Shown here in pieces: positions 39,458-40,080 of a DNA stretch of 64,000 bases. A program made the position numbers and the translations under genes. The notes below the pieces were generated by a model. The model saw nothing but the letters and a program-made list of their open reading frames with translations, was not told the DNA's origin and searched no databases. Origin of the DNA: an uncultured Myxococcales bacterium (GTDB lineage: Bacteria > Myxococcota_A > UBA9042); assembly GCA_903929795.1 (NCBI GenBank), contig CAIYWC010000091.1, forward strand, positions 62,001-126,000. The letters run 5' to 3'. Numbering within the stretch: the first letter of the stretch is position 1; each line of letters begins with the position of its first letter.

Positions 39458-39943
39458 ATGGCCAACGTCAATAAAGTCATTCTGATTGGTCGCTTGGGCA
39501 ACACGCCTGAGCTCCGCTACACCACCGCCAACCACGCCGTCGCGGAGCTGCGGATCGCCGTCAACCGGGTCTACACGGACAAGAGCGGCCAGCGCCAGGA
39601 AAAGACCGACTGGTTTGGCGTGGAAGTCTGGGATAAGCAAGCTGAAAATGCCGAGCGCTACCTGCAAAAAGGCCGCGAAGTCTACGTGGAAGGCCGCTTG
39701 GCGACCGACGAGTGGATCGACAAGGACAGTGGCCAAAAGCGCACGAAAATCAAGATTGTCGCCGACACGTGGCAGTTCATCGGCAGTCGCGGCGATGGCG
39801 AAGGCCGTCCCGAGGGTGGCGGTGGCGGTGGCGGTGGCGAACGGCCGCGCCCGCCCGCTGGCCCGCGCCAGACCGGCCCCGCGCCGGGCATGGACGATCC
39901 GACGCCGGACGACATGGGCCCTGAAGACGATATTCCGTTCTAG
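39458..39943 (+). CDS. ssb: Single-stranded DNA-binding protein
   Basis: MANVNKVILIGRLGNTPELRYT, acidic tip DDIPF. Confidence 0.97.
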   Translation: MANVNKVILIGRLGNTPELRYTTANHAVAELRIAVNRVYTDKSGQRQEKTDWFGVEVWDKQAENAERYLQKGREVYVEGRLATDEWIDKDSGQKRTKIKIVADTWQFIGSRGDGEGRPEGGGGGGGGERPRPPAGPRQTGPAPGMDDPTPDDMGPEDDIPF

Positions 39944-40080
39944 CCATGCTGACCTATGTCCAACACCCCATTCTTCCAGTCAGACCTGTTGCATTTCGGA
40001 CTGGATCCGCGAGCGTGCACCTCCGGTGGCACGCCTCGGATGAAAGAGGTTTGAGCGAGAGCTTCGGTCGGAGTGTATAG
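39940..40080 (+). repeat. Dispersed ~135-bp element, copy B
   Basis: CTAGCCATGCTGACC...GCATTTCGGACTGGATCCGCGAGCGTGCACCTCCGGTGGCACGCCTCGGATGAAAGAGG...CTTCGGTCGGAGTGTATAG. Confidence 0.8.

What the first reader, a model, noticed from the sequence alone, without database searches (positions are those of the whole stretch)
39940..40080. Four-copy ~135-bp dispersed element placed exactly after stop codons
Copies lie at 5991-6120, 39940-40080, 46731-46868 and 61870-62010. Shared consensus: CATGCTGACC-N(~28)-CAGACCTGNCGCATTTCGGACTGGACCGCGNGCGTGCACCTCNGGTGGCACGCCGCGGATGANGGAGG...CTTCGGTCGGAGTGNATAG. All four are co-oriented with, and within about 0-3 nt of, the stop codon of an unrelated gene (lipoprotein, ssb, dienelactone hydrolase, NtrC regulator). 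Hand comparison of copies B and D gives an ungapped alignment at roughly 70% identity. The ends are imperfect inverted repeats (CTAGCCATGCTGACC / GGTCGGAGTGTATAG). This looks like a REP/MITE-like family or a conserved 3'-UTR structure.
Basis: partly seen in the sequence, partly recalled or inferred. Interest (0 to 1): 0.82.

Follow-up and report, generated by a model that had tools for sequence, protein, structure and literature searches.

The report
Jumping DNA that rebuilds stop codons
The four repeats belong to a family of at least 150 copies of a 135-base "hitch-hiker" transposon in an uncultured freshwater myxobacterial genus; they sit at stop codons because the element inserts at TA within CTAG-like sites and its first base restores the stop, so this is a new family of a known kind (IS630-type MITE) with an unusually neat way of sparing its host genes.

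Summary
The four copies belong to a family with at least 150 copies in this 6.35-Mb genome (list cap). It occurs in all 5 genomes of the genus and in 0 of 50 others of the class. It is a miniature inverted-repeat transposable element (MITE). Empty sites in sister genomes show that copies are insertions flanked by a duplicated TA, for example CTAGG becoming CTA-[AACATGCTGACC...GGTCGGCGTGTT]-TAGG. An IS630-family element in a sister genome has matching ends (25/28 and 21/26 bases), the same TA/CTAG target and a DDE_3 transposase. It is the likely mobiliser or a close cousin of it. The stop-codon placement needs no special targeting. In this GC-rich genome CTAG is rare in genes and 36% of non-coding CTAGs are stop codons; 36% of full copies sit in stop-codon TAs. 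Because the left end begins A or G, TA+A/G restores TAA or TAG, so copies are almost always co-oriented with the gene (26:3). A conserved 3'-UTR RNA structure is not supported (no covariation, no Rfam match). REP/RAYT does not fit. Novelty: new member of a known kind.

The parts
39943..40077 (+). MITE copy B (135 bp between target TAs)
   Evidence: up to 92% identical to other genomic copies; empty site in G002, G003, G004
39941..39942 (+). left target TA of copy B = TA of the ssb stop codon TAG
   Evidence: ORF 39230-39943, SSB Pfam, same stop in empty orthologues
40078..40079 (+). right target TA of copy B (duplicate)
   Evidence: filled ...GTGTA-TA-GCCGATG versus empty TTTTAGCCGATG in G004
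5990..6118 (+). MITE copy A, right end decayed; left TA 5988-5989 is in stop TAA of the 785-aa ORF
   Evidence: (82.4 bits); absent in G001, G002, G003; G004 has an unrelated palindromic stretch there
46733..46865 (+). MITE copy C, diverged; inserted about 4 nt after the DLH stop TGA
   Evidence: 77.9 bits; empty in G001, G003, G004
61872..62006 (+). MITE copy D; left TA 61870-61871 is in the ntrC stop TAG, right target copy TG 62007-62008
   Evidence: 97.5 bits; empty in all four sister genomes
39943..39968 (+). left terminal inverted repeat region of copy B, related to the IS630-element left end (21/26 for the family consensus, TA included)
40050..40077 (-). right terminal inverted repeat region of copy B, related to the IS630-element right end (25/28 for the family consensus, TA included)

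Best explanation
A non-autonomous transposon (MITE) of the IS630/Tc1-mariner type. Shown: about 135-137 bp with terminal inverted repeats (left TA-RACATGCTGACCGATGTC, right, reverse-complemented, TA-[TA]ACACTCCGACCGAAGT), inserted at TA, with TA on both sides of insertions whose sister-genome site is empty. Shown: the target consensus is CTAG (C before the left TA, G after the right TA), also in copies not at stop codons. Shown: a 1.2-kb IS630-family element with matching ends and the same target is present in a sister genome. Inferred: a transposase of that lineage cuts and pastes the MITE in trans. The stop-codon position follows from (i) CTAG being largely confined to non-coding DNA and stop codons in a 67% GC genome, (ii) loss of insertions that break genes (inferred), and (iii) the left end starting with A or G, so that TA from the target plus the element's first base gives TAA or TAG and the host protein is unchanged.
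For: Copy number and genus restriction. Empty sites with TA duplication at several loci, e.g. C37:148203 against CTAGG in G004 (GTAGG, ATAGG, GTAGA in the others), C131:16426, C179:89880, C134:54452, and window copies B and D. End-to-end match to IS L242:1380-2607 with 0-1 of 2000 shuffles reaching the score; its ORFs are IS630 transposase (NF033545, PF13358). CTAG target in non-stop copies: C before TA in 39/51, G after TA in 11/17. At stop 29/80 against 21% of non-coding TAs (p = 0.002) and 36% of non-coding CTAGs (p = 1). Left:right 26:3 (p = 1.5e-5), and the 3 reversed cases have right ends starting AA or GA. Same stop codon apparently hit independently in two species. IS630/ISY100 insert at TA with TA duplication (PMC2170065), and an IS630 preference for TA in CTAG is in a title cited there.
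Against: The matching IS was found in only one sister MAG (G004). The window's own genome shows only distant or broken IS630 genes, so the mobiliser now acting there is not seen; the MAG is 94% complete and IS elements are often lost from MAGs. The core between the ends shares nothing with the IS. Many old copies have lost one or both TAs (both seen in 18 of 82). Nine of 30 left-stop copies have TGA, which needs a later TAA/TAG to TGA change or occasional non-TA insertion.
Confidence: 0.9

Rival explanations
1. A conserved 3'-UTR RNA structure or terminator kept at gene ends by selection for RNA function.
For: Position after stops and same-strand bias; a central 11-pair hairpin is formed in 88% of cells; conservation along the core is uneven.
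Against: Base pairs do not covary beyond shuffles. In the one copy folded, the more stable fold is on the strand opposite to the host mRNA. About 64% of full copies are not in a stop codon. Orthologous sites in sister species lack the element. No Rfam match. Strand bias is explained by stop restoration.
Confidence: 0.05
2. REP/BIME element moved by a RAYT (Y1 transposase).
For: Short, palindromic, dispersed, intergenic.
Against: No Y1_Tnp match in G000 or G001, which hold the strongest copies; element is 135 bp with TIRs and TA duplication, not expected of RAYT/REP (own knowledge).
Confidence: 0.01
3. Integron attC-like recombination sites, which also sit just after stop codons and fold back.
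For: Position after stops, imperfect foldback.
Against: Dispersed singly, not in cassette arrays; ends do not read like the attC core boxes; insertion adds only the element and TA, not a gene.
Confidence: 0.01
4. Active seeking of stop codons or gene 3' ends (for example coupling to termination), beyond CTAG preference and selection.
For: Same stop codon hit independently in two species; about 36% of copies at stops.
Against: The stop fraction equals the share of non-coding CTAGs that are stops (29/80 vs 23/64, p = 1).
Confidence: 0.05
5. Remnants of a duplicated gene 3' end.
For: None beyond the position.
Against: Host genes unrelated; homology starts and ends at the TAs; empty sites in sisters.
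Confidence: 0.01

Closest known systems
RUP (repeat unit of pneumococcus), MITE of IS630-Spn1
   Same: 107 bp, 108 copies, TIRs shared with an IS630-family element, TA target, intergenic (PMC2229807).
   Different: Different host and different partner IS; sequence relation not tested. Here the left TIR start rebuilds TAA/TAG, stop-codon insertions are numerous and oriented, and the partner IS is seen only in a sister genome.
IS630 / ISY100 (bacterial Tc1/mariner family)
   Same: TA target with TA duplication (PMC2170065), CTAG preference of IS630 (title of Tenzen & Ohtsubo 1991 cited there), TIR homology to the L242 element.
   Different: The MITE carries no transposase and its core is unrelated to the IS.
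ERIC / Correia (NEMIS) and other bacterial MITEs
   Same: Short dispersed imperfect palindromes, often TA-flanked (own knowledge; review PMC2229807).
   Different: No sequence relation known; not tested base by base.
CIR repeats of Caulobacter
   Same: Intergenic repeats over 100 bp in a GC-rich genome.
   Different: Associated with methylation sites, unclear mobility (PMC2229807); sequence relation not tested.

Membership tests
IS630-type MITE | Short (<400 bp) unit without transposase, in many copies | tested here: met
   135-137 bp; at least 150 copies
IS630-type MITE | Terminal inverted repeats | tested here: met
   Imperfect TIRs, 13 pairs, 78.5% of cells paired over 97 copies
IS630-type MITE | TA target duplication | tested here: met
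   Filled versus empty sites; in old copies one TA is often mutated
IS630-type MITE | TIRs shared with an IS630-family element | tested here: met
   25/28 and 21/26 with L242:1380-2607, transposase NF033545/PF13358
IS630-type MITE | Insertion polymorphism between close relatives | tested here: met
   Window copies A-D and others absent from sister genomes
IS630-type MITE | Mobilisation in trans by the transposase | not testable with these tools
   Needs an excision/insertion assay
REP/RAYT (REPIN) | Cognate Y1 (RAYT) transposase in the genome | tested here: not met
   None in G000 or G001
Conserved 3'-UTR RNA element | Covarying base pairs | tested here: not met
Integron attC | Array of cassettes, each with an attC site | tested here: not met
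   Single dispersed copies, no cassette gained at filled sites

The most novel reading that the evidence does not exclude
The MITE's asymmetric ends are an adaptation: the left end (A or G after TA) restores a stop codon, which makes stop codons a safe harbour in a GC-rich genome and lets the family reach high copy number with little harm. The same stop codons are hit repeatedly in different species.
Probability: 0.25. Interest if true: 0.55.

Novelty: new member of a known kind. Interest (0 to 1): 0.42.

Why it matters
It gives a complete, testable account of why a mobile repeat sits exactly at stop codons: target rule, purging of gene-breaking hits, and an end sequence that rebuilds the stop. 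The same test (empty sites, stop restoration by the TIR, CTAG share at stops) can be applied to other intergenic repeats that look like 3'-UTR elements. It probably also explains contig breaks in these freshwater myxobacterial MAGs and gives insertion markers for the genus.

Tried and rejected
RNA reading: RNAalifold on 30 copies and pair counting on 97 copies gave no covariation beyond shuffles; Rfam negative at gathering and relaxed thresholds. RAYT search negative in G000 and G001. Other IS630 elements of the genus (L241, L245) have unrelated ends, so the match to L242 is not a general IS630 feature. A 400-kb sample taken at regular spacing from long contigs holds only 7 matches: long contigs are poor in copies, perhaps because copies break the assembly, so no copy-number extrapolation is given beyond the listed 150. 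Literature searches found no report of stop-restoring MITE ends in the open-access library, which is not proof of absence.

Full report
Observation. The four stretches exist at the stated places and align over their length. They are members of a large family: a DNA search of the window's own genome gave 40 listed matches, the best off-site ones at 92% identity, and a sequence-only covariance model built from 30 copies gave 150 matches (list cap), the weakest at E = 1.8e-16. A control made by reversing 400 kb of the genome gave none.

Distribution. All five genomes of the genus carry the family, and 0 of 50 other genomes of the class do. A pattern search of 85,488 species genomes found exact core matches only in records titled uncultured Myxococcales MAGs. 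The class search used stricter filters, so weak, distant relatives may be missed.

It is a mobile element. For the window copies and other copies I compared the flanks with four sister genomes. The cleanest case is C37:148203: filled ...GGC C-TA-[AACATGCTGACC...GGTCGGCGTGTT]-TA-GG TGTG, and in the sister G004 ...GGC CTAGG TGTG; the three other sisters have GTAGG, ATAGG or GTAGA at the same place. Copy B reads CTA-[GCCATG...GTGTA]-TAGCCGATG against TTTTAGCCGATG in G004. Copy D is absent from all four sisters, where the ntrC stop abuts or overlaps the next start (TGATG or TAATG in three of them, TGAATG in the fourth); the insertion splits that junction but leaves a stop upstream and a start downstream. 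Copy A is absent from G001-G003 (G004 has another sequence there), and copy C from G001, G003 and G004. So the unit moves, duplicates TA, and starts right after the TA.

Partner element. A search for the IS630 catalytic domain (DDE_3) in the genus found few genes. One, in sister G004, lies in a 1228-bp element (TA to TA, L242:1380-2607) whose ends read TAAACATTCCGACCGAAGTC... and, from the other side, TAAACACTCCGACCGAAGTCCAAGATCA. The MITE's left end matches the IS left end at 21/26 and its right end matches the IS right end at 25/28, with 1 and 0 of 2000 shuffles scoring as high; the MITE core has no counterpart in the IS. The IS has two overlapping ORFs with HTH and DDE_3 domains, both hit by the NCBIfam IS630 transposase model, and it too sits in a C-TA...TA-G site. 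Other IS630 elements of the genus have different ends. The own genome holds only distant or interrupted relatives. Relatives of this transposase are common in metagenomes. Mobilisation in trans is therefore inferred, by analogy with RUP and IS630-Spn1 (PMC2229807), not shown.

Why stop codons. I called genes with a simple codon-usage scorer on 464 kb (90% coding; 67% GC). TA occurs 3638 times in coding DNA, 561 times between genes and 150 times in stop codons. CTAG occurs only 14 times in coding DNA, 41 between genes and 23 in stops. Of 80 full-length copies with flanks, 26 have their left TA in a stop codon, 3 their right TA, and 51 neither. That 36% is more than the 21% expected if non-coding TAs were hit evenly (p = 0.002) and equals the 36% expected for non-coding CTAGs (p = 1). 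In copies not at stops, C precedes the left TA in 39/51 and G follows the right TA in 11/17, so the CTAG preference does not derive from stop codons. IS630 itself is reported to prefer TA in CTAG (title cited in PMC2170065).

Why one orientation. After insertion the host codon reads TA plus the element's first base. From the left this is usually A or G, giving TAA or TAG; from the right it is most often T, giving TAT and loss of the stop. Left-oriented stop insertions outnumber right-oriented 26:3 (p = 1.5e-5), and the three right-oriented ones have right ends that begin AA or GA, which also restore a stop. TGA at the junction is seen mainly in diverged copies, as expected if TAA/TAG later drifted to TGA. 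Gene calling was approximate, and the copies were chosen by model score, so the exact fractions carry that caveat.

Recurrent hits. At five sites occupied in both the own genome and G001 the two copies are 78-90% alike, while in most cases each is closer to copies elsewhere (for example B: 81% to the same-site copy, 91% to other own copies; the G001 copy 90% to an own copy elsewhere). B is empty in G002, G003 and G004. The simplest reading is independent insertion into the same stop codon.

RNA function. The central hairpin is conserved by sequence, but its pairs do not covary beyond shuffles. In the copy folded, the more stable fold is on the antisense strand, and Rfam finds nothing. I do not exclude local effects on expression. 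The uneven conservation of the core (for example GCATTTCGGACTGG, GGTGGCACGCC) is not explained; it may reflect needs of transposition in source copies.

Verdict. A new family of IS630-type MITEs in an uncultured myxobacterial genus: known kind, with an elegant and testable stop-restoring end.

Noticed in passing
L204 (sister G004) at the site of window copy A: At the same stop codon as copy A, G004 carries a different stretch with two strong inverted repeats (CTTGTGACA..TGTCACAAG and CTGCTGTCGGC..GCCGACAGCAG), possibly another repeat family using the same stop.
   Followed up: no
G000 contigs C80, C97, C115, C142; G001 C51, C72: Contigs begin inside or within a few bases of a copy: the element seems to break these assemblies, so true copy number is probably higher.
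   Followed up: partly
L241:1-180 (G002) and G002:C63:3-270: Head-to-tail tandem MITE copies, in L241 next to an IS630 element with unrelated ends.
   Followed up: no
L242:1380-2607 (G004:C752): IS630 element with two overlapping transposase ORFs and an A8 run at the overlap, suggesting programmed frameshifting.
   Followed up: partly
window copy D, 61870-62008: Insertion splits a tight stop/start junction (TGATG, TAATG or TGAATG in the sisters) between an NtrC regulator and the next gene; may uncouple their translation.
   Followed up: partly
alignment A3, core blocks GCATTTCGGACTGG and GGTGGCACGCC: Core blocks between the ends are conserved far better than neighbouring columns, with no match to the IS; reason unknown.
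   Followed up: partly
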